Below, one piece after another: positions 1 to 11,438 of a stretch of 60,763 nucleotides of DNA. The number at the start of each line of letters is the position of its first letter. Position 1 is the first letter of the stretch. The stretch lies in NCBI RefSeq assembly GCF_904842695.1, contig NZ_CAJGWQ010000012.1, forward strand, positions 1 to 60,763, given 5' to 3'. The notes beneath the pieces were generated by a model, which was not told the origin of the DNA, searched no databases, and was given only the letters and a program-made list of their open reading frames with translations. The translations under genes and the position numbers were made by a program. The stretch is from Gulosibacter hominis. GTDB taxonomy: Bacteria > Actinomycetota > Actinomycetes > Actinomycetales > Microbacteriaceae.

Positions 1-1
1 C

Positions 2-247
2 GGCCGGCATCAACACACCCGCCCGTACACGCCACGACACAACGGCAAAGTTGAACGCTACAACCGGCTGTTGGCTGACGAGTGCCTCTATGCCCGGCCC
101 TACACGTCAGAACAACAGCGACGAGAAGCTCTTAAAGCCTGGAACCATCACTACAACTATCATCGACCCCACACCGCCTGCAGTGACCAGCCACCGGCCT
201 CACGCCTCCACACCCGTGTCGACAACGTCATGACCAACTACACCTAG
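2..247 (+). mobile_element. IS481-type transposase, C-terminal fragment
   Basis: An open frame enters from the left edge of the window and stops at TAG 245-247. The visible 81 residues contain YTPRHNGKVERYNRLL, the conserved C-terminal stretch of DDE integrase-core transposases with the catalytic Glu, followed by WNHHYNYHRPHTA. This combination is typical of IS481-like and related IS3-like enzymes. The N-terminal part and the first two catalytic Asp residues lie outside the window, so I cannot tell whether the gene is intact. A possible right terminal inverted repeat ends near 316 (outward-reading TGTCGGGTCAGAGATTCTG). The element borders the AT-richer gene cluster that follows. Confidence 0.85.
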
Positions 248-695
248 CAGCTGACTGATGAAGAAAAGCGGGCCCTCTAACATCTGACGCCAAGAATCAG
301 AATCTCTGACCCGACAGCCAACATGTGCATCGGTACGGTTAAGCACCACAGTTATCCTGGTGATCTTCGCTTAAACCACATCACCTCCACGTTGATCAGC
401 AGACTCAAGATCACTCAATCTTTAGATCAGAGAAGGCTGAAGTTCTTGAGATCAGGTGCACAATCTCGTGACGAGTCACACTACGAACACGATCTACAGC
501 AGCTGGCAACTTCCAACTCCGACAAGTGTTACGCGAACCAATTGTTAGCCACCGCCGCTAGCAGACGACTCCGCATAGCCCATGGGAGTAGCAAGATTCT
601 TTCAGGGCTTTCACAGGAAATACCTGTTGCCGGCCGGGGTAGGTCAACTAGGGTGTGCTTAAACCTATTGGGCTAAGTATTACAAGGAAGTAATC
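248..695. other. Intergenic stretch between transposase and peptide cluster
   Basis: No convincing gene was found in these 448 bases. The left part, to about 316, is the presumed end of the insertion sequence. The rest is AT-richer than the chromosome downstream. An open frame at 323-676 has no ribosome binding site and an unconvincing residue composition, so I do not call it. The right end carries the candidate promoter and ribosome binding site of the peptide gene at 696. Confidence 0.6.
627..654 (+). promoter_or_regulatory. Candidate promoter of the peptide/carbamoyltransferase cluster
   Basis: TTGCCG (627-632) and TAGGGT (649-654) are separated by 16 bases. The -10 box fits the actinobacterial TANNNT pattern, and a start site near 661 would leave a leader of about 35 bases before the ATG at 696. 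The -35 match is only moderate, so this is tentative. Confidence 0.35.
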
Positions 696-791
696 ATGGC
701 TAGAACAGAAATACCAAACCGGAACACAGCAGAACTTACCCAAGAACAGCGTAGGCAAGCCACGCAAGAACTAAAAAATTCTTCCAATTAG
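696..791 (+). CDS. 31-residue peptide, candidate RiPP precursor
   Basis: A small open frame begins with ATG 696 and ends with TAG 789-791. It is preceded by AAGGAAG at 684-690 with five bases of spacing, one of the better ribosome binding sites in this region. The product begins MARTEIPNRN, has a charged Gln/Glu/Arg-rich middle (TQEQRRQATQEL) and ends in KNSSN. It has no Cys, no signal peptide and no membrane segment. The next gene starts five bases after the stop, so the peptide is the first cistron of the modification/export cluster. A helical charged leader followed by a short polar tail is how precursors of ribosomally made, modified peptides often look. That role is inferred; I recognise no family. 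It could instead be a translational leader for the next gene. Confidence 0.55.
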   Translation: MARTEIPNRNTAELTQEQRRQATQELKNSSN

Positions 792-796
792 TAAAT

Positions 797-1114
797 ATGA
801 TTGATGTGGAAAAATACAAGATGTTCAGCGGCGCCGTCGACGCAGTGTGGCATGAATTGCTCAAGGATCCGGACGCCTACGCTGCGTTCCTGGAGGAAGC
901 GGGTGTGGTAGAAAACATCGGTCACATGCCGGGCAGTGGATTCGGCGTCATCCAATGGATTCAAGATTATCACCAAAGATATGGGAAACTGACGCCGATA
1001 TGGTTTACAGATGCGTCAGGTGTCCTAGATGAAAAGAGCTACAATGCTTACTTGTCTACAGATGTAGTCGTGGCGGCGTGGGACTGTGGTGTGATGGTGC
1101 CAGTACTAGAGTGA
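797..1114 (+). CDS. 105-aa hypothetical protein of the cluster
   Basis: A small acidic soluble protein (MIDVEKYKMF...) starting at ATG 797, five bases after the stop of the 31-residue peptide. It has no good ribosome binding site of its own, so translation is probably coupled. The N-terminal part has an amphipathic helical stretch (VWHELLKDPDAYAAFLEEAG) loosely like the helical leaders of Nif11 or nitrile-hydratase-type RiPP precursors. The C-terminal part contains a single Cys in AAWDCGVMVPVLE. It could be a second, larger precursor, a leader-binding partner or an accessory subunit. I cannot assign a family. The overlapping reverse-strand frame at 788-976 looks like a shadow. Confidence 0.7.
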   Translation: MIDVEKYKMFSGAVDAVWHELLKDPDAYAAFLEEAGVVENIGHMPGSGFGVIQWIQDYHQRYGKLTPIWFTDASGVLDEKSYNAYLSTDVVVAAWDCGVMVPVLE

Positions 1115-1173
1115 TCTTTATTGAGACGAGAGGTGCTGGCATCGATTAAAAGAATATGTGACTAGTTAGTCAG

Positions 1174-1740
1174 ATGAAATTAACAGAATACTGTAGATTT
1201 GTGCAACCAAGTATAGATGCTCACGCACTCTGGGTAAGGGATTCATCTGCTACAAAGAGCTGGGAACTTTTTCGGGATATTATCTTTGCTCTGTTAGAGT
1301 TCGTAGAGAAAAAAAGTCTGTTGGAAACTCGCAAGCATCCATTGGCTTGCGTGGTCCTCAGGGTTGATTCCATGCCTGATGTGAACAGTGTGGCTGAGGT
1401 TTTCTCGATGATCCGCATTGCTGTGATAGCGAACCAAATAACCATGGGGCTCATGCCGGGCGGCGCAGCTATTCTAGCTGAACAAAGGATAATCCAACAG
1501 GAGGGCTCCGAATCGCTTGTAGTGATTCGGAGTAAGCTCGAATCAGACAGCAGATTCAGGGCGCACATAACTTCGGATGCGGTCAATGCTCACTCGAAAC
1601 TTTTACATAAGTTCCTAGCAGCTGAAGCGAAGGTGCCTGATGTCACCAATACAGGAAAATGGCAGGAAGAGTACAACAGTCATGTTGCAGAGGTTGGGGA
1701 GTTATGCTTTCGAGTGCCACATGGCCAGTGTTGTCTGTAG
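1174..1740 (+). CDS. 188-aa cluster protein, possibly DUF6875-like
   Basis: The frame starts at ATG 1174; an in-frame stop lies 15 bases upstream, so a longer form is excluded. The pattern YCRFVQPSI...LWV near the N-terminus, then HPLACVVLRV in the middle and MGLMPGG...LVVIRSKLESDSRF later, recalls from memory the DUF6875 proteins found beside biosynthetic genes. That resemblance needs a profile search. No membrane segments are seen. Its last 37 bases overlap the start chosen for the kinase-like gene, which implies translational coupling. Function is unknown. The codon choice, including TTA codons, differs from the GC-rich housekeeping genes of the window. Confidence 0.65.
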   Translation: MKLTEYCRFVQPSIDAHALWVRDSSATKSWELFRDIIFALLEFVEKKSLLETRKHPLACVVLRVDSMPDVNSVAEVFSMIRIAVIANQITMGLMPGGAAILAEQRIIQQEGSESLVVIRSKLESDSRFRAHITSDAVNAHSKLLHKFLAAEAKVPDVTNTGKWQEEYNSHVAEVGELCFRVPHGQCCL

Positions 1741-2555
1741 AGCAGCAGAGGTCCGTTGAAGCTATAGTCGAAAATCTAAATATTGGGGGGGCGTCGTCGC
1801 TTAATGAGGTGCGGACCCTCTCTAATAGGCGCCATTATGCGCTGATGCTTATTACGCATGAGAGTCAGAAGCGTATCCTAAAAGTGGGAGAAGGTGCTGA
1901 TTTTGATATGATTCGATCCGAGTACAGCTCGTTGAAGAGGTTAGGTTATAGATACTCAGGGCGTGTGCTGGACTACAATCAAACAAAAAGTGCTGCTGCG
2001 ATTCTGCTGGACTGGGTAGAGGGGCGCAGTTTGGTAACGCATTGGCGACAGGTTGGGATGAAACCGAGCGTGTTGTTAACTGATATTGAACGTATAGGTA
2101 AGGAGCTAGATTACTTACATGCGCGGCAAGTAACTCATGGGGATCTTCAGCCGACACATATCCGATTTAGGGACTCTGAACCAACATTCATTGACTTTGG
2201 AGTCTCCGGGCCCTCCCATGAAGCTTACAGTGGCGGGTTGACCCACTATATGGCGCCGGAATTAGCTGCACAATGTTTGAGCGGGTCAGCTCCCACACGT
2301 AGCCCGGAAGCAGACTGGTATGCACTTATTGCGTGTGCGTATGTTGCAATAACTGGCCGCGCTCCGATGCAATACGGTGCAAATGCCCATAGGGATGAAC
2401 GATTGGATGCGATCAGTAACATGCGCACTGCATTCCATAAAGGGGACAGTCATCTTGCAATTATGCTGGGGCGAGCATTAAGTTTGCGGCCCGACGAAAG
2501 GCGTGAATATGTGCTCGCAATTTCTGACTTCTGGGAGCGTGAAAAGAGTGGGTGA
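1704..2555 (+). CDS. Ser/Thr protein kinase-like protein
   Basis: A 283-aa single-domain kinase fold. A likely ATP-binding Lys lies in RILKVG near residue 59. The catalytic loop is HGDLQPTH near residues 145-152, the metal-binding motif is FIDFG near 163, and MAPEL and EADWYALI follow as the APE and helix-F motifs. The usual Asn five residues after the catalytic Asp is His here, which may alter Mg binding. No membrane segment or sensor domain follows, so it differs from PknB-type receptors and looks like a small soluble kinase acting on a peptide, small molecule or partner. I chose ATG 1704, preceded by an AGG/GGGGA-rich site at 1692-1700, over ATG 1659. The gene overlaps the carbamoyltransferase by 8 bases. 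RiPP pathways use kinases for dehydration or tail phosphorylation; the role here is unknown. Confidence 0.8.
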   Translation: MLSSATWPVLSVEQQRSVEAIVENLNIGGASSLNEVRTLSNRRHYALMLITHESQKRILKVGEGADFDMIRSEYSSLKRLGYRYSGRVLDYNQTKSAAAILLDWVEGRSLVTHWRQVGMKPSVLLTDIERIGKELDYLHARQVTHGDLQPTHIRFRDSEPTFIDFGVSGPSHEAYSGGLTHYMAPELAAQCLSGSAPTRSPEADWYALIACAYVAITGRAPMQYGANAHRDERLDAISNMRTAFHKGDSHLAIMLGRALSLRPDERREYVLAISDFWEREKSG

Positions 2556-4245
2556 TGCTCCTGTTACGCTGGGGGTCAGCGCTTGGATCCCAAACTCTTC
2601 GGCATCTTTACTGCTCGGCGACCAGTACATTGGATCTATGGAAGAAGAGCGGTTTATTGGTATCAAGAAAGTACGCACATGGCCGAGCCGGGCTATCGGT
2701 GAACTTACAAGGTCGGCCTCTATTTCCTCAAACGATATCGACAAAGTAGTCGTCAATATAGATCCAAAGCTGTTTGCGACGGTGAGTCACGACGAATCGT
2801 ATTCACAAAGCATAATTGAGCAACGAGAGACTGCATGTCGCGAAGCGTTCCACAGGTGGACTAGTAGGATCAATGCAGTCAAAGAGAAGTACCCGTATGC
2901 TAGCGTGGTCGGCATACCGCATCATGAGGCCCATGCAATGTATGCTTTTCTCGCGTCGGGCTATGATCAAAGTGCAATAGTCGTTCTCGACAGTGTTGGT
3001 GAGGTTACTGCTTCGTCCGTTTGGCTTGGAAGCCGCGCAGAAAGAAATGTCATCAGAAACGTATGGAATTCTCCGGATTATTCCTCAATAGGATATTTCT
3101 ACGCATCTATAACTGACCACCTCGGGTGGATGCCGAATGATGAAGAGGGAACAGTGATGGCACTCGCTGCGCTCGGGGATCCATCACGTTTTAGAGAAAC
3201 TATAAAACGCCTGATACGATTTGTTGATGGCAGCATTCGCGTTGACTATGCGCTACTTCATCCGAGAGTACGTAGACAACGCAAAGGATTTACTTCGCAA
3301 TTCCATGAAATTGTGAGTCAGCGCAGAATGCCTGGGGAGAATATTGAGCAGGTGCACTGCGACTTGGCGGCTGCCGCTCAGCAGCGTCTAGAGGAACTCG
3401 TAAGCGAGATATGCGAATTCGCTCTAAAGATGACTGGGCAGCGAAAACTAGTATTAACTGGAGGAGTGGCGGAGAATTGCGTTGCCAATGGTGCAGTAAT
3501 GTCACTTTCGGATCTCGATTCAATCTATGTCCCGGCGGCGCCTGGCGACTCTGGGACCGCCTTGGGTTCCGCTCTAGCAGCTCATCCACAAGCGCTAGAC
3601 ATCTCGTATCATTCGATTGCCGATCCATTTGTGGGAGCCGTGGTTAAGCGCGCTCAGCTGTCTAATCAATTCAGACTGAAATGGGCTGGTTTATCTGCCG
3701 TAGAGCTAGCGGGGCAACTTAGTGAGTGGCTGCGAGCTGGTGAAGTTATAGCGATTGTGGAGGGAAGATTTGAGTTTGGGCCCCGCGCGTTGGGGAACCG
3801 GAGTTTGATAGCATCGGCAGGGGTTCCAGGCATAGTCGAAGTTCTTAACAGCAGCGTTAAAAAGCGAGAATCGTTTCGCCCATTTGCTCCAGTTGTCCGT
3901 TTAGAAACGTTTAACAAGTATTTTGACACCCCTAGAGTCGATTGTGATCTATCAATGATGAATTTCGCGATCCCAGCGAATCGGAATACTCTGGGGTTGA
4001 GGGGTGTGTTACATGCAAATGGTTTGGTTCGTGTGCAGGTAGTATCTGAAGAGAAACATCCGTTATTGTGGCACGCCTTATTGGCGGATGAAAGGGCAGG
4101 TGGCACTGGGGTGTTCATTAATACGAGCCTCAACGTGAAGGGTCAGCCATTGTGTGGAACTCCGCAGCTCTTGTTGGAGTTTGCCAACAAGAGTAAAGTA
4201 GATAAATTTATTATAAATGGATCCGTATATGAATTTCTAGGGTGA
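2548..4245 (+). CDS. NodU/CmcH/TobZ-family O-carbamoyltransferase
   Basis: About 565 aa, the usual length for the family. Members use carbamoyl phosphate and ATP to form carbamoyl-adenylate and then transfer the carbamoyl group to a hydroxyl of an antibiotic, Nod factor or peptide. Seen in order: an N-terminal actin-like domain beginning VTLGVSAWIPNSSASLL and EEERF, the His cluster PHHEAHA near residues 124-130, GGVAENCVANG, and then the C-terminal domain with EFGPRALGNRSL near 407, KKRESFRPFAP near 437 and FINTSLNVKGQP near 522. I chose GTG 2548, with GGGAG ten bases upstream and an 8-base overlap with the kinase gene. GTG 2539 and ATG 2503 are alternatives. The JmjC-type oxygenase gene follows after one base, so a hydroxylate-then-carbamoylate sequence is plausible. 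Confidence 0.9.
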   Translation: MGDAPVTLGVSAWIPNSSASLLLGDQYIGSMEEERFIGIKKVRTWPSRAIGELTRSASISSNDIDKVVVNIDPKLFATVSHDESYSQSIIEQRETACREAFHRWTSRINAVKEKYPYASVVGIPHHEAHAMYAFLASGYDQSAIVVLDSVGEVTASSVWLGSRAERNVIRNVWNSPDYSSIGYFYASITDHLGWMPNDEEGTVMALAALGDPSRFRETIKRLIRFVDGSIRVDYALLHPRVRRQRKGFTSQFHEIVSQRRMPGENIEQVHCDLAAAAQQRLEELVSEICEFALKMTGQRKLVLTGGVAENCVANGAVMSLSDLDSIYVPAAPGDSGTALGSALAAHPQALDISYHSIADPFVGAVVKRAQLSNQFRLKWAGLSAVELAGQLSEWLRAGEVIAIVEGRFEFGPRALGNRSLIASAGVPGIVEVLNSSVKKRESFRPFAPVVRLETFNKYFDTPRVDCDLSMMNFAIPANRNTLGLRGVLHANGLVRVQVVSEEKHPLLWHALLADERAGGTGVFINTSLNVKGQPLCGTPQLLLEFANKSKVDKFIINGSVYEFLG

Positions 4246-4246
4246 G

Positions 4247-4924
4247 ATGATGGGTGTGCTAGAGGAATTAGGATTATATCCGAGCGAAATCATTGGGCTT
4301 ATTGAAATCTGCAGTGTTGCGAGGCAGTGGAATCTAGAGACTAACGTAGGTGTGAGGGTTGCTATGTCTCTGGGTGACGCTTTGAATCTGATCTATCGAA
4401 GTGGTGTAGATCTTTCGACGGTAGAGATGGTGAAGCGGGGAGAGGGAGAAGGCAATTCGTTAAGGGACTACACCGTGGTTGATTTAGTGAACAGTTCTTT
4501 CGAGTCTGCCATCTTGTCCGGGGCTGCTCTGAAAGTTATTGGCTCGAATCAGGGGTTAACAAGCAATCCGCTTCTAAGAGCATATCTTGATAGTAGAGGG
4601 GTTCAGGCTCATTATTTCTTCTCTGGAGCCTTTTGTCAAGCATACCCTGGGCATTTTGACCTAGCCGATGCTGTGGTGATTCAGATAGTTGGCTGCAAAG
4701 ACTGGCAGCTATGGCCAACACTGCCTCCCGGTGATGTTCGTCGAAGCACACGTCGCTGGTGCTTTGAAGATGGACATGAACTGCTACAAATCCACGCCGG
4801 TGAATGCTTAACTATGCCTGCTTACACCCCTCATATAGTTTCGTCTAATTTCGTTCCATCCGCGCATTTGGCATTAGCGATTCGAGGAGCGGGGAGTGGG
4901 CATCTTGCTTCGGAGAACAACTGA
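4247..4924 (+). CDS. JmjC/cupin-type Fe(II)/2-oxoglutarate oxygenase-like protein
   Basis: A 225-aa protein whose core matches the cupin_4/NO66/RoxA-like hydroxylase pattern. H136 and D138 in PGHFDLADAVVIQIVG supply the HxD iron ligands, K151 in GCKDWQLW is the probable 2-oxoglutarate contact, and H196 in AYTPHIVSS is the distal His. Enzymes of this group hydroxylate amino-acid side chains (Arg, His, Asn) in proteins and peptides. The gene starts one base after the carbamoyltransferase stop (ATG 4247, or the adjacent ATG 4250) and overlaps the exporter gene by 29 bases. A hydroxyl group made here could be the acceptor of the carbamoyl group; this is inference. All three iron ligands appear intact. 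Confidence 0.75.
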   Translation: MMGVLEELGLYPSEIIGLIEICSVARQWNLETNVGVRVAMSLGDALNLIYRSGVDLSTVEMVKRGEGEGNSLRDYTVVDLVNSSFESAILSGAALKVIGSNQGLTSNPLLRAYLDSRGVQAHYFFSGAFCQAYPGHFDLADAVVIQIVGCKDWQLWPTLPPGDVRRSTRRWCFEDGHELLQIHAGECLTMPAYTPHIVSSNFVPSAHLALAIRGAGSGHLASENN

Positions 4925-6638
4925 GAGTTACTTGCAGCCGTCTGAGAAGGATATGAGTCAGCTGGCTCACTATCCAGTTTCCTGGAATAGGGCGTGGTCG
5001 TTTTTCTTCTCTGATCAGTGGAGATGGATTGTGCTGCTTATTGTGTGTAGCCTGATAGCGGCTTTATTGGGTTTAGGTGCTCCGCTCTTGATTCGTGAAA
5101 TTATTAATGTTGCACTACCGGAAGGTGATTTTAACCTGCTAACGGTCCTTGCTGGTCTAATGCTTGCTGTTGCGGTTGCTTTGCAAGTAGTCAATGTGAT
5201 TCTGACAATGGTTGCTTCTCGTATCGGTGATCAGTCGATTCTGAAAGTCAGGCACTCGGTCATTGAGCACAGTCTCCAGCTTGAGTTGTCATATCTACTC
5301 GAGCATGGGGAATCAAAAATACGCGCCCATTTGATGAATGATGTTAATGAGATTCGGAAAGTACTCGGTTCAACTGGCGTTGCAATCATTTCTAACTGTT
5401 TTGTGACTGTCGCGACAGTTGTGGTGATGTTTTATCTTGCCTGGCAATTAGCAATTGTTACTTGCGTGGCCATTGTCTTTTCAATTTGGGTCGCGCGTAG
5501 AAGTGGCCGGAACCGTCAGCTGTGGCGGGCTCGCGTCCAGGATCAGAATGCGGCTATTGATGCGAAACTCTCCCAGGTGATGAGCTCGGACGGAGCGATG
5601 CTGAACCGTACGACCGGAATGGTTGATAATGTAGGTGCATCATTGCACAGCCTCGCTAAGGAACTGTCTGCAGCTGAGTCTTCTTTGGAGCGGGTGGGAG
5701 GGGCTAGGCTTGCTGTTATCGGGATTTCGTTTGCAGCACTACCTGTCTGTATCTATTGGGTTGGTGGGCAATTATATATTACTGATGCAGTGCCCCTTGG
5801 TACTTTGGTGGCTTTCGCCTCATTGCAGTTTGGCGTTATGAGGCCAGCGATGGGGGTTATGAATATATATGCACAGCTGGTGAGTTCGAAGGCTTTGTTT
5901 TCGAGGTTGTTTGAGTTTCTTGATAGTCCAGTTGAGGAGCCCAGGTCGCTGAAATGGAATGTTTGTCCAGTTGGCAAATCGCTTCTTATAAAAGGTGTAG
6001 AGTTTTCATATGATGGTCTAACTGCGGTCTTGCGTGGTGTAAATGGTTGTTGTGCTCCTGGCGATTTTATTAGTATTGTTGGGCCTTCCGGTGTTGGTAA
6101 GAGTACACTGGGGCGGCTGTTAGCTGGCTTGCTGCGCCCGACGTGTGGATCAATTACAGTTGGTGGCGTCGATCTGTGTGCTCTTGAATACTCGGCGCTC
6201 GCTTCGTACGTTCGTTTCCTTCCTCAGGATAGCTTTATTTACGAAGGGACGTTACGTGAGAATTTACTGTGGGGAGTTGGGAATGTTGATAGTAGTGATG
6301 TCGACGAGGTGTTGGAGCTAGCTCAATTATCAGAGTTTGTTGAGGGATTACCATTGGGGCTGGATACCCCTGTTGGTGTCAGGGGAGCAATGCTATCTGG
6401 AGGGCAGAGGCAGAGAATAGCGATCGCTCGCGCTGTTTTAGCGGGTCCTCAGGTGCTGATCCTTGACGAGGCAACGAGTGCGCTGGACGAGGACACGGAG
6501 CGTAAAATTTTAGATGCGATCAATCGCGAGTTCGTCGATCGTATTGTCATTTTTATCACTCATCGCCCGCGGGTGGCTGCATATGCTTCGCGTAGCCTCG
6601 AAGTTAAGGACGGCGCTGTCATGCGTATTCAGTGCTAG
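4896..6638 (+). CDS. ABC exporter, fused permease and ATPase (half transporter)
   Basis: 580 aa with type I exporter architecture. The membrane domain spans roughly residues 40-330 (first helix WIVLLIVCSLIAALLGLGAP). The ATPase domain has Walker A GPSGVGKST near 395, the Q-loop FLPQDSFIYEG, signature LSGGQRQRIAIARA near 498, Walker B VLILDEATSALDE near 520 and the H-loop in FITHRP. It would act as a homodimer in the cytoplasmic membrane. No C39 peptidase domain precedes it, so any leader would have to be removed by something else. GTG 4896 has a strong GAGGAG at 4884-4889; ATG 4953, after GAGAAGG, is the alternative. It is the last gene of the cluster and probably exports the product, possibly also giving self-resistance. 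Confidence 0.9.
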   Translation: MGILLRRTTESYLQPSEKDMSQLAHYPVSWNRAWSFFFSDQWRWIVLLIVCSLIAALLGLGAPLLIREIINVALPEGDFNLLTVLAGLMLAVAVALQVVNVILTMVASRIGDQSILKVRHSVIEHSLQLELSYLLEHGESKIRAHLMNDVNEIRKVLGSTGVAIISNCFVTVATVVVMFYLAWQLAIVTCVAIVFSIWVARRSGRNRQLWRARVQDQNAAIDAKLSQVMSSDGAMLNRTTGMVDNVGASLHSLAKELSAAESSLERVGGARLAVIGISFAALPVCIYWVGGQLYITDAVPLGTLVAFASLQFGVMRPAMGVMNIYAQLVSSKALFSRLFEFLDSPVEEPRSLKWNVCPVGKSLLIKGVEFSYDGLTAVLRGVNGCCAPGDFISIVGPSGVGKSTLGRLLAGLLRPTCGSITVGGVDLCALEYSALASYVRFLPQDSFIYEGTLRENLLWGVGNVDSSDVDEVLELAQLSEFVEGLPLGLDTPVGVRGAMLSGGQRQRIAIARAVLAGPQVLILDEATSALDEDTERKILDAINREFVDRIVIFITHRPRVAAYASRSLEVKDGAVMRIQC

Positions 6639-6859
6639 GCCCAGAACGGATCTCATTCTGTATCCGGCACGTCTGGTCGTGGTTTTCATTGACTGGAGGG
6701 AATTTGGGCGTGCGTGGGTCGGTTGTTTTGACTTGTCATAGTGGCTGCTCGGGGGCAGCACATCTCGCATTTTGTCGCAGTAGATGTCAGAGTGTGACGT
6801 TACGTGACGCTGAACTGCGCTTTGTGACAGCTCGGCTGGGCAGCTGATGCGGCTCGCCA

Positions 6860-6865
6860 TACGGT
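6860..6865 (+). promoter_or_regulatory. -10 box of metF, leaderless arrangement
   Basis: TACGGT ends six bases before the metF ATG, so transcription would start at or next to the start codon. No ribosome binding site is visible before the ATG. The upstream intergenic region (6639-6859) marks the return from AT-rich to GC-rich sequence. Confidence 0.45.
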
Positions 6866-6871
6866 GGCTGC

Positions 6872-7873
6872 ATGACCGCCGTTCCGTTCTCATTTGAGCT
6901 ATTCCCGCCGCGCACGCCCGCCGTCGCGGCGCGAATGCCGGATGTTGCGCGCCAATTGGGTGCGCTGGGGCCGGAATTCATTTCGGTCACCTTCGGCGCC
7001 GGCGGCTCATCGCGGAAAGAGTCGCTGGGCGTACTCGAACTGGTGCGCGATCTTGCCCAGGTTCGTCCCCTCGCACACCTCACCTGCGTGGGCGCCACCA
7101 CCGCAGAGCTTTCAGCACTGATCGGTGAATTCATCGACCGCGGCATCCGCGACTTCCTCGCCCTGCGCGGCGATAAACCGGCGGACGCGGTAGGAGATGA
7201 GTGGCTCGGCGAAATCCGCACCGGAGCCGAACTCGCGCAACTCGTGCGCGGAGTGCGGCGCACCCGCATCCCCGAAGAACTCGAACGCGTCACCCCCACC
7301 GACGGACGCTGGCGCGTCAGGGACGCCCGCGGCGGCATCATCGCGGTCGCAGCGTACCCCACCGGCCACCCAGAATCTCGCGACGAACAGCAAGATCTCG
7401 ACACCCTCCTGGCCAAAGAAGCAGCGGGAGCCAACCTTGCGATCACCCAGCTGTTTTTTGAGGCCGACGATTACCTGCGCTTTGTCGAACGTGCCCGCGC
7501 CCACGGTGTGAGCATCCCCATCCTGCCGGGCATTATGCCGATCACCTCGATCGCGCGACTGAATCGCATGGCGCAGCTCAGCGGCGAACCGGTGCCACAG
7601 CGCTGGCAGCGCGCGCTCGAATCGTGCACCAGCGACGCCGCCCGCAAAGAACTCGGCATCGCCCAGGCAACCGCCATGTGTCACGACCTGCTCGACGGGG
7701 GCGCTCCGGGGCTGCACCTCTACACCCAAAACCGAGTCAGCGAACCGGTCGAACTGCTCTGCCGCGTCGGTGCAGTTGATCGAGCGCGAGCCGAAGCCCT
7801 GCTGGCCAAACAAGAGCCGGTTCCCGAGTCGAGCTCGAGTGCAGCGTTCCGAATGCTGATGCGCTCGCACTGA
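6872..7873 (+). CDS. metF: Methylenetetrahydrofolate reductase
   Basis: 333 aa. It reduces 5,10-methylene-THF to 5-methyl-THF with FAD, supplying the methyl group for methionine synthesis. Seen: FELFPPRTP at the N-terminus with the catalytic Glu, FISVTFGAGGSSR, HLTCVGAT, and FLALRGDKP with the Asp that contacts folate and flavin. It ends at 7873, 93 bases before metE, whose product uses the methyl-THF, so the pair probably forms one transcription unit. This is the first clearly chromosomal gene after the accessory cluster. Confidence 0.93.
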   Translation: MTAVPFSFELFPPRTPAVAARMPDVARQLGALGPEFISVTFGAGGSSRKESLGVLELVRDLAQVRPLAHLTCVGATTAELSALIGEFIDRGIRDFLALRGDKPADAVGDEWLGEIRTGAELAQLVRGVRRTRIPEELERVTPTDGRWRVRDARGGIIAVAAYPTGHPESRDEQQDLDTLLAKEAAGANLAITQLFFEADDYLRFVERARAHGVSIPILPGIMPITSIARLNRMAQLSGEPVPQRWQRALESCTSDAARKELGIAQATAMCHDLLDGGAPGLHLYTQNRVSEPVELLCRVGAVDRARAEALLAKQEPVPESSSSAAFRMLMRSH

Positions 7874-7966
7874 ACGCCACGGGCGACAGAGCCGAGCGCG
7901 CACCCCACCAGCATCCGGCGGTAGCTGACCGCACCGCATCCGAAAACGATCTGAAAGAAACACAGC

Positions 7967-10378
7967 ATGAGCATCCAGCACCAGTCATTCCCAACCGGCA
8001 CCGTCCTCGGTTACCCGCGCATCGGCCGCAATCGCGAACTCAAGCGCGCACTCGAGCAGTATTGGCGTGGTAAGACCACCCGCGACGAGCTCGAACAAGT
8101 GCGTGGTGAAGTGCGCGCCGCTGCCCGCGCCGCACTCGCCGCCGCGGGACTCGACCGCACCGACTCATCCATCCCCGAAGACTCATCAACCTACGACCAC
8201 GTGCTCGACACGCTCGTTACCGTGGGTGCGGTGCCGGCTCGCTTCGCTGACGCGATTCATGCCGAAACCGTGACCACCGACGATGCCTTCCTGCTCGCAC
8301 GCGGTGACGCCACGCATCCGGCACTCGAGATGACCAAATGGTTCGACACGAACTATCACTACCTGGTGCCCGAGATCGGCCCCGAAACCAATTTCGCCTA
8401 CGCCAATCGAGAGCGCGCCGAACAGGTGCGCGAGGCAAGAGCCGCCGGATACGTGACACGCCCGGTGCTGGTTGGCCCGGTCACCTTCCTCGCGCTCGCA
8501 AAGGCGAGCGATGCCGCACCCGAAGGATTCGATCCGCTCGACCGGCTCGACGACCTCGTGCCCGTGTACCGCGAACTGCTGGCCGATCTTCGGGATGCCG
8601 GTGCCGAGTGGGTGCAGCTGGATGAATCGGCGCTCGTTTCGCAGCTGCTCGGTGCCGACCAGACACGTCTGGGTGAGCTTGCCGGTCAGGTGTACCGCGA
8701 ACTGGCAGCGGCAAGCGACCGTCCCGCGATTTTTGTCGCCACCTCGTATGCAGCTCTTCCCGAAGCGAGCTTCGCACAGCTTGCCGAATCGGGAGTTGAG
8801 GCCGTCGGTATTGATCTCGTTAACGGTGAGGCGCCGGCGGCAGCGGCGAACGAGCAGCGCGTGCAGCTGGTCGCCGGAGTAATTAACGGACACAATATTT
8901 GGCGTGCCGATCTTGACCGCGCGCTCGGCAGGCTCGAGCAGCTGCGCGATGGTGGGGCCCGGGTTTCGGCGGCAACCTCCACGTCGCTCTTTCACGTGCC
9001 GCACACCCTGGCAGACGAGACCGAAGCGCTGCCCGAACAGCTGCGCTCATGGCTTGCATTCACCGATGAAAAAACCCGCGAAGTGGTGACACTGGCGCGC
9101 GGTCTCGAAAACGGACGCGAACACATCCAGGTCGAACTGGATGCGGCAAGCGCAGCCCTCGCCGACCGCGAGGCAGCCCCCGGCGTGCGCAACCCGGCGG
9201 TGCGCGAACGGGTGGCTGGAATCACCGCCGCCGATCGCCAACGCGAACCGTACAGCGAACGGGCCGCGGCACAGGCCGCCGCACTGGCGCTGCCGCCGCT
9301 ACCGACCACCACGATCGGTTCGTTCCCGCAGACCGGTGATATTCGCCGCGCCCGCCGCGACTTCCTGCGCGGTGACATTGATGAGCAGGCCTACAACGGC
9401 TTCCTACGCGACGAGATTCGCCGCGTGATCGAGCTGCAGCTCGAACTCGGTTTGGACGTGCTCGTGCATGGTGAACCCGAGCGCAACGATATGGTGCAGT
9501 ATTTTGCCGAGCACCTCGACGGTTTTGCCACCACCGCAAACGGTTGGGTGCAATCGTACGGATCTCGCTGTACCCGCCCGTCAATTTTGTGGGGCGATGT
9601 ATCGCGCCCGGCACCGATCACCGTGCCCTGGTCGCAGTACGCCCAGTCGCTCACCGACCGCCCGGTGAAGGGGATGCTGACCGGCCCGGTGACGATCCTC
9701 GCCTGGTCGTTCGTGCGCGATGACCAGCCGCTCGCCGACACCGCCGCCCAGGTGGCGTTGGCACTGCGCGATGAGGTGAGCGACCTCGAAGCCGCCGGCA
9801 TCCACATCATTCAGGTTGATGAGCCGGCGCTGCGTGAGCTGCTGCCGCTTGAGCGTGACCGCCACGACGACTACCTGCGCTGGTCGGTGGATGCATTCCG
9901 TCTCGCCACTGCCGCAGTGGCCGTGACGACGCAGATCCACACCCACCTGTGCTACTCGGAGTTCGGTGAAATCATCGCGGCAATTGACGGTCTCGATGCC
10001 GATGTCACCTCGATCGAGGCTGCCCGCTCGCGAATGGAAGTGGTGGCAGATCTGGCTGCGCATGACTACCCGCGCGGTATCGGCCCCGGCGTGTGGGATA
10101 TTCACTCGCCGCGCGTGCCCAGCGATGACGAGATTGCCGAGCTCGTGGAAATCGCCGCGAAAGCGATTCCCAGCGACCGACTGTGGGTTAACCCCGATTG
10201 CGGCCTAAAAACTCGCGGCTATGACGAGACAATCGCCTCGCTGCGTGGGCTCGTCAAGGCTGCCGCCGCCGCTCGCGACTACGCACTAGCAGGTGCAGCT
10301 AATGAGGGGCCCGGTCGAGTGACCGGGCCCCTCGCCGCTAGCGTCCAAATGCATCGGCGACAATGGATGCATGTCTGA
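7967..10378 (+). CDS. metE: Cobalamin-independent methionine synthase
   Basis: 803 aa. It transfers a methyl group from 5-methyl-tetrahydropteroyltri-glutamate to homocysteine, with zinc in the C-terminal barrel. Both halves are present: the N-terminal domain begins GTVLGYPRIGRNRELK, and the catalytic half contains TTTIGSFPQT, IIQVDEPALRE, HTHLCYSEF (zinc ligands His and Cys) and VNPDCGLKTR (second zinc Cys). Family similarity seems to end near LVKAAAAAR. About 33 further residues follow, and their codons run through a perfect 13-bp hairpin at 10304-10333. A one-base shift would end the protein at TAG near 10286-10288, so the natural end may be there. The start ATG has GAAAGAA upstream. Confidence 0.93.
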   Translation: MSIQHQSFPTGTVLGYPRIGRNRELKRALEQYWRGKTTRDELEQVRGEVRAAARAALAAAGLDRTDSSIPEDSSTYDHVLDTLVTVGAVPARFADAIHAETVTTDDAFLLARGDATHPALEMTKWFDTNYHYLVPEIGPETNFAYANRERAEQVREARAAGYVTRPVLVGPVTFLALAKASDAAPEGFDPLDRLDDLVPVYRELLADLRDAGAEWVQLDESALVSQLLGADQTRLGELAGQVYRELAAASDRPAIFVATSYAALPEASFAQLAESGVEAVGIDLVNGEAPAAAANEQRVQLVAGVINGHNIWRADLDRALGRLEQLRDGGARVSAATSTSLFHVPHTLADETEALPEQLRSWLAFTDEKTREVVTLARGLENGREHIQVELDAASAALADREAAPGVRNPAVRERVAGITAADRQREPYSERAAAQAAALALPPLPTTTIGSFPQTGDIRRARRDFLRGDIDEQAYNGFLRDEIRRVIELQLELGLDVLVHGEPERNDMVQYFAEHLDGFATTANGWVQSYGSRCTRPSILWGDVSRPAPITVPWSQYAQSLTDRPVKGMLTGPVTILAWSFVRDDQPLADTAAQVALALRDEVSDLEAAGIHIIQVDEPALRELLPLERDRHDDYLRWSVDAFRLATAAVAVTTQIHTHLCYSEFGEIIAAIDGLDADVTSIEAARSRMEVVADLAAHDYPRGIGPGVWDIHSPRVPSDDEIAELVEIAAKAIPSDRLWVNPDCGLKTRGYDETIASLRGLVKAAAAARDYALAGAANEGPGRVTGPLAASVQMHRRQWMHV
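10304..10333 (+). terminator. Strong hairpin inside the 3' end of metE
   Basis: GAGGGGCCCGGTC, loop GAGT, then GACCGGGCCCCTC: a perfect 13-bp stem. It looks like a factor-independent terminator without a long U tract, but it lies within the open metE frame. Confidence 0.6.
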
Positions 10379-11438
10379 TTCGAGCGGAGCTGCACTAGAG
10401 CGCTATCAGCCGGTGCCCGTCTCACTTCCCGAAAGTGAGGTTGGGTGGCGGCGCGATGGCAGCGACACCGATTTGCATTTTGTTGCGCCGGTGGGCGACC
10501 GGATGTGGCGCCGCAACGCAGTGCCAGCCGGAGCCATCCCGTTTTGGTCGGGTGTCGGCTGGGGCGCGCTGGGGATTGGTGCCGGGTCACTCGCCGGCAT
10601 GCTCGAACTTGCCGCGGTGCAACCGTTTATGCCGCTCATTATTGCCGGTGCCGGAGCCGCGGCCTTCATTGGTGGCTGGCTGGGTGGAAAACGCCGCCAG
10701 CGTCAGGTGCGAGCCCGTAACGCCGCGATCGAAGCGGCTGGTGAAGCGCTATCGCAGTCGTACGCGGTTGATTTGCACGGCGCGGCGGGTGCCCCGGTTC
10801 GGGCTCGGATCCGCGAGACTCTGCGCACTGGCGAGCCCGGATCGGTGAGCACCTTCACCGGCCGCGGCCACGCGAGCTTTCGGGTGCGAGCTGTGAGCGA
10901 CAACGAAATTGTCGTGAGCCCGTTCGAACGCCCATCGACTCGCAACTCGTTTATCGACGATGTGGTGCGAGCGACCGCGATGCCGATCACTTCCACCGGC
11001 GGGGCAAAAAGCGCAACCCCCGAGGCGGATACGCGTATGGGGCAGCTGGAGCAGCGGCTGCGGGTGCTCGAAAAAGCCGGCGCCATCACGGCCGCGCATC
11101 CCGCTTATACGAGGCTGGTGACGCTCAAGGTCGACCGGATGACCGAATACCGGGTGCTGGCTGCACGCATTTCCGCGGTAAAACGACTTAAAACCGGGCA
11201 GTCGGAGGCAACCGTGGTCGAGCTCGAACGCGATCTCGACCGCGTGGTTGAGCTGATGCGTCGCGGTGTCGACGAGCTCGAGCAAGAAGTGCTTGGGGAT
11301 GCTCGCCGCGATAGCGATGCCCACCTCGACTTTTTGCAACAAAAATACGGTCGACTCGACGCAGACCCTGCCGCTGCCGACACAAACGCCCCGGGCAGCC
11401 ACGAAGCCACTACCCGGGGCGAATCGAACGGCGACTAG
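10371..11438 (+). CDS. Hypothetical membrane protein, 355 aa
   Basis: I do not recognise the family. The first 55 residues are soluble. Two membrane segments follow (about residues 58-82 and 86-108, including GVGWGALGIGAGSLAGM and FMPLIIAGAGAAAFIGGW), then a basic GGKRRQRQVRAR stretch and a cytoplasmic part of about 240 residues with a coiled-coil-prone C-terminal region (RMGQLEQRLRVLEKAG; ELERDLDRVVELMRRGVDEL). The ATG at 10371 overlaps the metE stop by 8 bases. GACAAT six bases upstream could be a -10 box for a leaderless message. The stop codon shares CTAG with the convergent gnd stop. Confidence 0.75.
   Translation: MSDSSGAALERYQPVPVSLPESEVGWRRDGSDTDLHFVAPVGDRMWRRNAVPAGAIPFWSGVGWGALGIGAGSLAGMLELAAVQPFMPLIIAGAGAAAFIGGWLGGKRRQRQVRARNAAIEAAGEALSQSYAVDLHGAAGAPVRARIRETLRTGEPGSVSTFTGRGHASFRVRAVSDNEIVVSPFERPSTRNSFIDDVVRATAMPITSTGGAKSATPEADTRMGQLEQRLRVLEKAGAITAAHPAYTRLVTLKVDRMTEYRVLAARISAVKRLKTGQSEATVVELERDLDRVVELMRRGVDELEQEVLGDARRDSDAHLDFLQQKYGRLDADPAAADTNAPGSHEATTRGESNGD
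11387..11421. terminator. Hairpin at the 3' end of the 355-aa gene, before convergent gnd
   Basis: CGCCCCGGG and CCCGGGGCG pair over a 17-base loop. The hairpin lies within the last codons of the plus-strand gene and just beyond the gnd stop, so it could end transcription from both sides. Confidence 0.45.

What the first reader, a model, noticed from the sequence alone, without database searches (positions are those of the whole stretch)
627..6638. Candidate new biosynthetic cluster: short peptide, kinase, carbamoyltransferase, JmjC oxygenase, ABC exporter
Seen: seven tightly packed plus-strand genes, most overlapping or within a few bases, on an AT-richer segment beside a transposase. Known: NodU/TobZ carbamoyltransferases modify hydroxyls of secreted metabolites, cupin_4-type JmjC enzymes hydroxylate amino-acid side chains, and one-chain ABC exporters secrete peptides. 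There are no NRPS, PKS, LanC, YcaO, radical SAM or lasso cyclase genes. Inference: a ribosomal peptide, or a small amino-acid-derived product, is hydroxylated, O-carbamoylated, perhaps phosphorylated, and exported. I know of no described pathway with this gene set.
Basis: partly seen in the sequence, partly recalled or inferred. Interest (0 to 1): 0.87.

Follow-up and report, generated by a model that had tools for sequence, protein, structure and literature searches.

The report
Acquired operon with unknown modifying module
A small foreign gene cluster in an actinobacterium joins a previously unnoticed three-gene set, also seen in Streptomyces and partly in Macrococcus, to carbamoyl-adding, oxygenase and export genes, and probably makes and exports a small modified compound that is not yet identified.

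Summary
In detail: seven close-packed plus-strand genes (696-6638), 48.7% G+C against 62.7% for 6872-60763, between an IS481 fragment and metF-metE. Eight same-genus loci keep metF-metE without any cluster gene in the 1.5 kb or so held upstream.

The 105-aa p2 is 39-47% identical to the first gene of a Streptomyces operon p2-DUF6875-kinase-GNAT and 32-33% to proteins of two Macrococcus-type plasmids. The 188-aa p3 is probably a divergent DUF6875 protein. On one Macrococcus plasmid the p2 and kinase genes lie near a RamC_N (lanthipeptide-synthetase N-terminal) protein and an MFS exporter.

The 31-aa p1 has a good ribosome site but no relative in plasmids, phages or the fetched loci. None of 17 loci with the module or parts of it matches this carbamoyltransferase, JmjC protein or ABC exporter at E 0.01; none of 80 carbamoyltransferase loci matches the kinase or JmjC protein.

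Verdict: a real, acquired, probably biosynthetic operon with a new gene combination. A RiPP is possible, not shown; substrate unknown; left edge cut by the contig end.

The parts
71..247 (+). 3' end of an IS481-type transposase; the window starts inside it (contig end)
   Evidence: PF13683 6.9e-10, NF033577 1.2e-14; six further places in the own genome match 127-253 bases of it at 96-100%, five of them at contig ends, and four weaker ones (contig lengths)
696..791 (+). p1: 31-aa frame, strong Shine-Dalgarno, possible precursor or translational leader
   Evidence: sequence; AAGGAAG upstream; no relative found
797..1114 (+). p2: conserved 105-aa protein with W-D-C near its end; first gene of the conserved module
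   Evidence: 48% over 88 aa to the L181 protein, E 1e-24; family alignment with 18 columns invariant in 7 representatives
1174..1740 (+). p3: probable divergent DUF6875-like protein
   Evidence: HMM 10.3 bits against a best of 5.1 in 200 shuffles, 10.5 against 5.2 in 500, but -1.2 bits with the module-only profile; same operon position as DUF6875; no curated library hit above cut-off (in one search only a weak NHLP-related match, E 0.034)
1704..2555 (+). Protein kinase with beta-3 Lys, HxD and DFG Asp; His at the usual Asn position
   Evidence: PF00069 6.1e-16; partial LanL similarity 41 bits, cut-off 650; alignment
2539..4245 (+). NodU/TobZ-type carbamoyltransferase (start uncertain, 2503-2548)
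   Evidence: PF02543, PF16861; novobiocin enzyme 9s2t 4.6e-64, GdmN 6.5e-63, TobZ 1.5e-40
4247..4924 (+). Small JmjC_2 (cupin) oxygenase with HFD...H
   Evidence: PF08007 2e-6 above cut-off; aligned to MINA HYD...H at E 0.11
4896..6638 (+). One-chain ABC exporter, TMD plus NBD, no C39 peptidase match
   Evidence: PF00664 5.4e-22, PF00005 1.6e-28

Best explanation
A horizontally acquired operon for a small modified product that is exported. Its core is a module p2-p3(DUF6875-like)-kinase that occurs elsewhere with an acetyltransferase and sometimes near an MFS gene. Here the module is coupled instead to an O- or N-carbamoyltransferase, a JmjC oxygenase and an ABC exporter. Proposed working (inference): p2 presents or is the substrate (its conserved W-D/N-C segment near the C-terminus, or a partner peptide such as p1); p3 and the JmjC protein bind or hydroxylate it; the kinase phosphorylates a Ser/Thr or hydroxyl, as protection, activation or (in Macrococcus, with the RamC_N protein) for elimination; the carbamoyltransferase caps a hydroxyl or amine; the ABC protein exports the product. 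Shown: the genes, their order, their families, the conserved module, foreign composition and absence from the congener flanks held. Not shown: any reaction, the substrate, or that p1 is made.
For: Operon structure and foreign base composition. metF-metE kept, with no cluster gene in the flank held, in 8 same-genus loci; 10 same-genus genomes were searched and two gave no metF match. p2-DUF6875-kinase in the same order and strand in 7 of 12 Streptomyces genome regions fetched and on plasmids L181, L182, L186, with GNAT next in all 7 genome loci (6 by similarity; L206 by Pfam). Macrococcus plasmid L184: p2, kinase, GNAT (opposite strand), RamC_N (1.3e-15), a DUF6875-like protein, MFS. The carbamoyltransferase aligns over residues 18-560 of 571 with the novobiocin enzyme. 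Precedents for NodU-type carbamoylation and JmjC hydroxylation in ribosomal peptide pathways: PMC13174530, PMC10070186, PMC12707348 (passages); carbamoyltransferases and JmjC_2 proteins fused to RiPP recognition elements, PMC12710340 (passages).
Against: No substrate is identified; p1 has no relative found. The full gene set was found in no other genome, so co-function of the module with the last three genes rests on this one operon. The Streptomyces modules scanned stand beside HTH-DUF5753 regulators; an MFS gene was identified near two (L204, L206) and the surroundings of the others were not scanned that far, so a non-biosynthetic role is possible. p3 is weakly assigned: a five-sequence profile of the module's own DUF6875 proteins scored it at -1.2 bits, ranked 135th with its 500 shuffles; blastp against one of them gave E 0.94; hhalign probability only 12%. 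Kinase and ABC protein also match models of the MADS defence system, for the kinase far below NCBIfam's cut-off.
Confidence: 0.5

Rival explanations
1. The product is not a peptide: free-standing enzymes modify an amino acid, sugar or nucleoside, and p1 is a leader frame that feeds ribosomes to p2.
For: The carbamoyltransferases of the 80 loci kept (35-39%) lie in a conserved actinobacterial operon: a gene family that is thymidylate-synthase-like in the one locus scanned occurs in 79 of 80 loci, a glycosyltransferase-like family in 78 of 80. p2 has no visible ribosome site and starts 5 nt after the p1 stop, which suggests coupling. p1 has no relative found.
Against: No thymidylate synthase, glycosyltransferase or sugar gene among the seven genes; the kinase is protein-kinase-like with partial LanL/LanKC similarity.
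Confidence: 0.27
2. One reading: p1 is a ribosomal precursor, hydroxylated, carbamoylated, perhaps phosphorylated, and exported.
For: p1 is first in the operon, short, rich in Thr, Asn, Gln and Arg, with a strong Shine-Dalgarno; RiPP precedents for both enzyme types; crocagin's precursor is only 21 aa.
Against: No p1-like frame upstream of p2 in 11 module loci examined; no protease family among the seven proteins; no relative found.
Confidence: 0.15
3. p2-p3-kinase is a regulatory or defence-type unit that happens to sit in front of a separate carbamoyltransferase-JmjC-ABC operon.
For: The kinase matches defence kinase models MkoA (4.2e-16), PD-T4-6 (1.8e-13 and weaker) and mad6 (5.3e-10), and the ABC protein matches mad3 (2.6e-27); NCBIfam's MAD6 scores 42.9 bits against a cut-off of 460. 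The module is found on plasmids and beside HTH-DUF5753 regulators.
Against: Such hits are to be expected for any protein kinase or ABC ATPase; p2 and p3 hit no PADLOC model at E 0.01; the kinase and carbamoyltransferase genes overlap; on a Macrococcus plasmid a RamC_N protein and an exporter lie in the same block.
Confidence: 0.08

Closest known systems
std cluster of Streptomyces thermodiastaticus (PMC13174530, passages read)
   Same: NodU-like carbamoyltransferase and an oxidative iron enzyme on a ribosomal peptide
   Different: std uses a carbamoyltransferase fused to an S8/S53 peptidase domain, MNIO, YcaO-TfuA and an MFS permease; none of these families apart from the carbamoyltransferase was hit by the seven window proteins
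Crocagin cluster (PMC10070186, passages read)
   Same: very short precursor (21 aa), carbamoyltransferase CgnI, dioxygenase
   Different: CgnB/CgnE binding proteins, CgnD hydrolase and CgnL methyltransferase; no kinase described in the passages read
Biphenomycin cluster (PMC12707348, passages read)
   Same: JmjC protein (BipG), reported as an ornithine hydroxylase acting on a ribosomal peptide
   Different: MNIO, radical SAM, arginase-type enzyme, metalloprotease; no carbamoyltransferase or kinase in the gene list read
Class III/IV lanthipeptide synthetases LanKC/LanL (PMC10604976, passages read)
   Same: kinase partly like LanL's; a RamC_N protein beside p2 and kinase on a Macrococcus plasmid
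   Different: no lyase or LanC domain hit in the window; separate proteins
Thymidylate-synthase-like/carbamoyltransferase/glycosyltransferase operon of actinomycetes (L045-L124; no name found)
   Same: closest carbamoyltransferases found by sequence
   Different: none of the window's kinase, p1, p2, p3 or JmjC proteins matched at E 0.01; ABC-type matches in 3 of 80 loci

Membership tests
NodU/TobZ O-carbamoyltransferase | both Carbam_trans N and C domains | tested here: met
   alignment to solved carbamoyltransferases
JmjC_2 oxygenase | JmjC_2 score above cut-off, HxD...H iron ligands | tested here: met
   27.8 bits against 22; HFD...H opposite HYD...H of MINA in a weak alignment, E 0.11
RiPP cluster | conserved precursor peptide next to enzymes | tested here: inconclusive
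   p1 without relatives; p2 conserved along its length, role unknown; a short frame of about 60 aa shared by 4 of 17 loci but not by the window
RiPP cluster | class-defining enzyme or RiPP recognition element | tested here: inconclusive
   no class-defining family above cut-off in Pfam or NCBIfam for the seven frames; recognition element not testable by fold, models too poor
Class III/IV lanthipeptide | lyase and LanC domains | tested here: not met
   only a partial kinase match to LanL/LanKC in the window; RamC_N only in Macrococcus L184
Peptidase-containing peptide exporter | C39 peptidase domain | tested here: not met
   Pfam shows TMD and NBD in 580 aa and no peptidase
DUF6875 | score above Pfam cut-off | tested here: not met
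   no hit for p3; session profiles of DUF6875 and synteny suggest a distant relation
DUF6875 heme enzyme | heme-binding motif | tested here: inconclusive
   the position that is His or Tyr in most DUF6875 proteins I read is neither in p3 and varies within the module; which residue binds heme was not in the passages read

The most novel reading that the evidence does not exclude
p2-type proteins are the substrates or carriers of a new class of ribosomal peptide product: a folded scaffold whose conserved W-D/N-C segment near the C-terminus is modified by the DUF6875-like protein and the kinase, with variable add-on enzymes (acetyltransferase, RamC_N protein, or here carbamoyltransferase and JmjC), spread across two phyla.
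Probability: 0.15. Interest if true: 0.8.

Novelty: new variant of a known kind. Interest (0 to 1): 0.55.

Why it matters
If the module makes a product, it marks a set of unrecognised small clusters in Streptomyces and, so far, two Staphylococcaceae plasmids. Of its three proteins p2 has no family and the second only a DUF name, so a standard cluster finder may pass over it (not tested here). The window copy would also be a rare ribosomal-peptide setting for a carbamoyltransferase: the std paper counts StdF as the second after crocagin.

Tried and rejected
JmjC as a handle: single-protein searches gave only weak, unrelated cupins (9 of 297 genomes, own included; none in viral contigs; 4 plasmid records). 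In 70 carbamoyltransferase-bearing genomes JmjC_2 matched 23 (own included); one other, G655, has the two about 5 kb apart on opposite strands, and G527 about 19 kb apart. Carbamoyltransferase neighbourhoods: 80 kept of 107 found; none matches the window's kinase, p1, p2, p3 or JmjC protein at E 0.01; three have an ABC-type match. p3 alone: no convincing relative in 296 genomes (best other E 8.7e-4) nor on plasmids. Kinase: only the own genome of 246 at E 1e-15. p2 as a single sequence: nothing but the own below E 0.01 in 248 genomes of the order. AlphaFold of p2 and p3 from single sequences: mean pLDDT 42.5 and 40.6, discarded. p2 in viral contigs: none. Promoter and terminator scans: no more than shuffles. 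Kinase context in Actinomyces oris (L178): an ordinary cell-wall and kinase locus. DUF6875 neighbourhoods in Moraxella and Methylophaga: DUF6875 plus an ATPase-like protein, and these records are not among the seven with p2. A resemblance of p2 to plant GRDP-like proteins is recalled only; Pfam gave no hit for four p2 relatives.

Rows dropped: one of 13 p2 places (G979) was not fetched; of the 12 regions fetched, L208-L212 hold no complete module (partial p2 or none) and are outside the count of seven. The partial Streptomyces albidoflavus hit was not fetched. The 17 loci include some with only parts of the module (L175, L179, L180 and L183 without p2; L185 without an annotated kinase gene; L187 with a shortened kinase).
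Full report
OBSERVATION. Pfam and NCBIfam name the kinase, carbamoyltransferase, JmjC_2 protein and ABC exporter, and the IS481 fragment; p1, p2 and p3 have no family above cut-off. The block is 48.7% G+C against 62.7% for 6872-60763. Downstream metF-metE is kept in 8 same-genus loci (metF 61-73% identical); 10 same-genus genomes were searched and two gave no metF match. No cluster gene is found in the roughly 1.5 kb held upstream of metF in these eight. The window's first base lies in an IS copy; six further places of the own genome match 127-253 bases of it at 96-100%, five of them at contig ends (contig lengths). So the block is an acquired island whose left edge is unknown.

THE CARBAMOYLTRANSFERASE. 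It matches the novobiocin enzyme, GdmN and TobZ. In 396 Actinomycetota genomes 70 have a match, the own included; the best other, 36% and E 5.8e-105, stands out. A scan of a collection of 84,980 species genomes with two conserved peptide patterns found 107 relatives, 80 kept, 35-39% identical in the best segment. In 79 of these 80 there is a gene family, upstream in the median, that is thymidylate-synthase-like in the one locus scanned, and in 78 a glycosyltransferase-like family, downstream in the median. Their flanks match none of the window's kinase, p1, p2, p3 or JmjC proteins at E 0.01, and three hold an ABC-type match. So the window enzyme has left, or never belonged to, that operon.

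THE MODULE. A recalled motif of DUF6875 led me to test p3 against nine DUF6875 proteins: 10.3 bits, above all of 200 shuffles (best 5.1); hhalign 26.6 against 18.35 at most in 100 shuffles, with a stated probability of only 12%. A 14-sequence profile gave 10.5 bits against 5.2 in 500 shuffles, but the module's own five DUF6875 proteins alone gave -1.2 bits. One of the nine, picked before I knew its neighbours, turned out to lie next to a relative of the window kinase with the same unusual H-x-D-L-Q-P-x-H loop. Following that kinase gave Streptomyces goshikiensis and strain P9-2B-2, where genes for a small protein, a DUF6875 protein and a kinase follow each other with overlaps. The small protein is a p2 relative: 48% over 88 residues, E 1e-24. 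A p2 profile matches 12 of 179 Streptomyces genomes at E 0.001 or better, with seven strong places in six genomes, but only the own genome of 169 in the family. On plasmids p2 relatives are in 7 of 72,556 records: five Streptomyces, two Macrococcus-type. In the seven strong genome loci p2, DUF6875 and kinase follow in the same order and strand, as in the window. A GNAT gene follows in all seven (L206 by Pfam). HTH-DUF5753 regulators stand upstream in the four loci scanned (L204-L207); DUF6879 was found in L206 and L207 and an MFS gene in L204 and L206, the only places scanned for these.

MACROCOCCUS. Plasmid L184 has p2, kinase, GNAT on the other strand, a 158-aa protein that is RamC_N (PF25816, 1.3e-15), a 161-aa DUF6875-like protein (14.8 bits against a best of 4.5 in 500 shuffles) and an MFS exporter. 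Plasmid L185 keeps p2 and MFS and, by reading, a cut piece of the DUF6875-like gene; no kinase gene is annotated. The RamC_N protein matches positions 46-158 of the LanKC model; in ThurKC the lyase domain is residues 29-213 (PMC10604976, passages). That it is a lyase is inference from this position. Phosphorylation followed by elimination is a fair guess there. No such protein was hit in the window.

RESIDUES. Across 15 kinases of this set the beta-3 Lys, the catalytic Asp and the DFG Asp are constant; the Asn of the catalytic loop is His in the window, L175, L180, L206 and L207. In p2, 18 columns are invariant in seven representatives, among them W18, H19, H43, W54, W69, W95 and C97; so W95 and C97 may be structural rather than a modified core. 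The C-terminal tails after W-D/N-C differ. p3 shares C-x-[FY], G-[LVI]-M and R...D-x-x-F positions with most of the module's DUF6875 proteins. One paper says that DUF6875 proteins were identified as heme-binding and able to oxidise tryptophan (PMC13307353, passages); p3 lacks the His or Tyr common after G-x-F in that family, and the module's own members vary there, so I do not claim heme for p3.

p1. It has AAGGAAG at good distance. p2 has no visible site and begins 5 nt after the p1 stop, so coupling alone could explain p1. It has no match in plasmids or phages at E 10. No p1-like frame lies upstream of p2 in 11 module loci. A different short frame of about 60 aa, several hundred bases upstream of p2, is shared by L181, L187, L201 and, without p2, L179 (4 of 17 loci), and has no match in window 1-7000; its meaning is open. 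The p1, carbamoyltransferase, JmjC and ABC queries give no hit at E 0.01 in 17 loci with the module or parts of it.

WHAT IT WORKS LIKE. A small tailoring and export operon. Precedents from papers (passages only): StdF and CgnI carbamoyltransferases and BipG JmjC act in ribosomal peptide pathways; recognition elements are fused to carbamoyltransferases and to JmjC_2 proteins. The searches listed no paper that showed this gene set or the p2-DUF6875-kinase module; I saw listings and abstract beginnings except for the six papers cited, and the library is open-access only.

VERDICT. Real operon, new combination, unknown product. The RiPP reading is open.

Noticed in passing
L045-L124, e.g. L053:5095-17656: A conserved actinomycete operon: in L053 a thymidylate-synthase-like protein, the carbamoyltransferase, a glycosyltransferase-like protein, a methyltransferase, a histidine phosphatase, an APH-type kinase and a sugar epimerase lie together; the first three families occur in 79, 80 and 78 of 80 loci. 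Suggests a carbamoylated hydroxymethyl-pyrimidine or glycoside product; I found no name for it.
   Followed up: partly
L012 (Streptomyces sp. NBC_00557 plasmid) 5172-10831: Another carbamoyltransferase gene with two cupin-domain genes close by, both matching the window JmjC protein weakly, plus peptidase genes and a ketosynthase gene further on.
   Followed up: no
L175:12339-15116 (Streptomyces sp. NBC_01116 plasmid): DUF6875 gene facing a gene for a kinase with the same HxDLQPxH loop, followed by an argininosuccinate synthase gene; the plasmid is not among the seven records with p2.
   Followed up: partly
L181:6289-6465, L187:6305-6490, L201:8614-8793 (minus), L179:2316-2453: A shared short frame of about 60 aa (46 aa matched in L179) upstream of the module, 68-77% identical to L181's; could be a second small component or part of the regulator set.
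   Followed up: partly
L187:7404-8558: DUF6875 frame running into a shortened kinase frame in S. zaomyceticus; the module looks decayed there.
   Followed up: no
L176/L177 (Moraxella, Methylophaga plasmids): DUF6875 gene directly followed by a gene for a 443-aa protein with an ATPase-like C-terminal part: a second DUF6875 pairing.
   Followed up: partly
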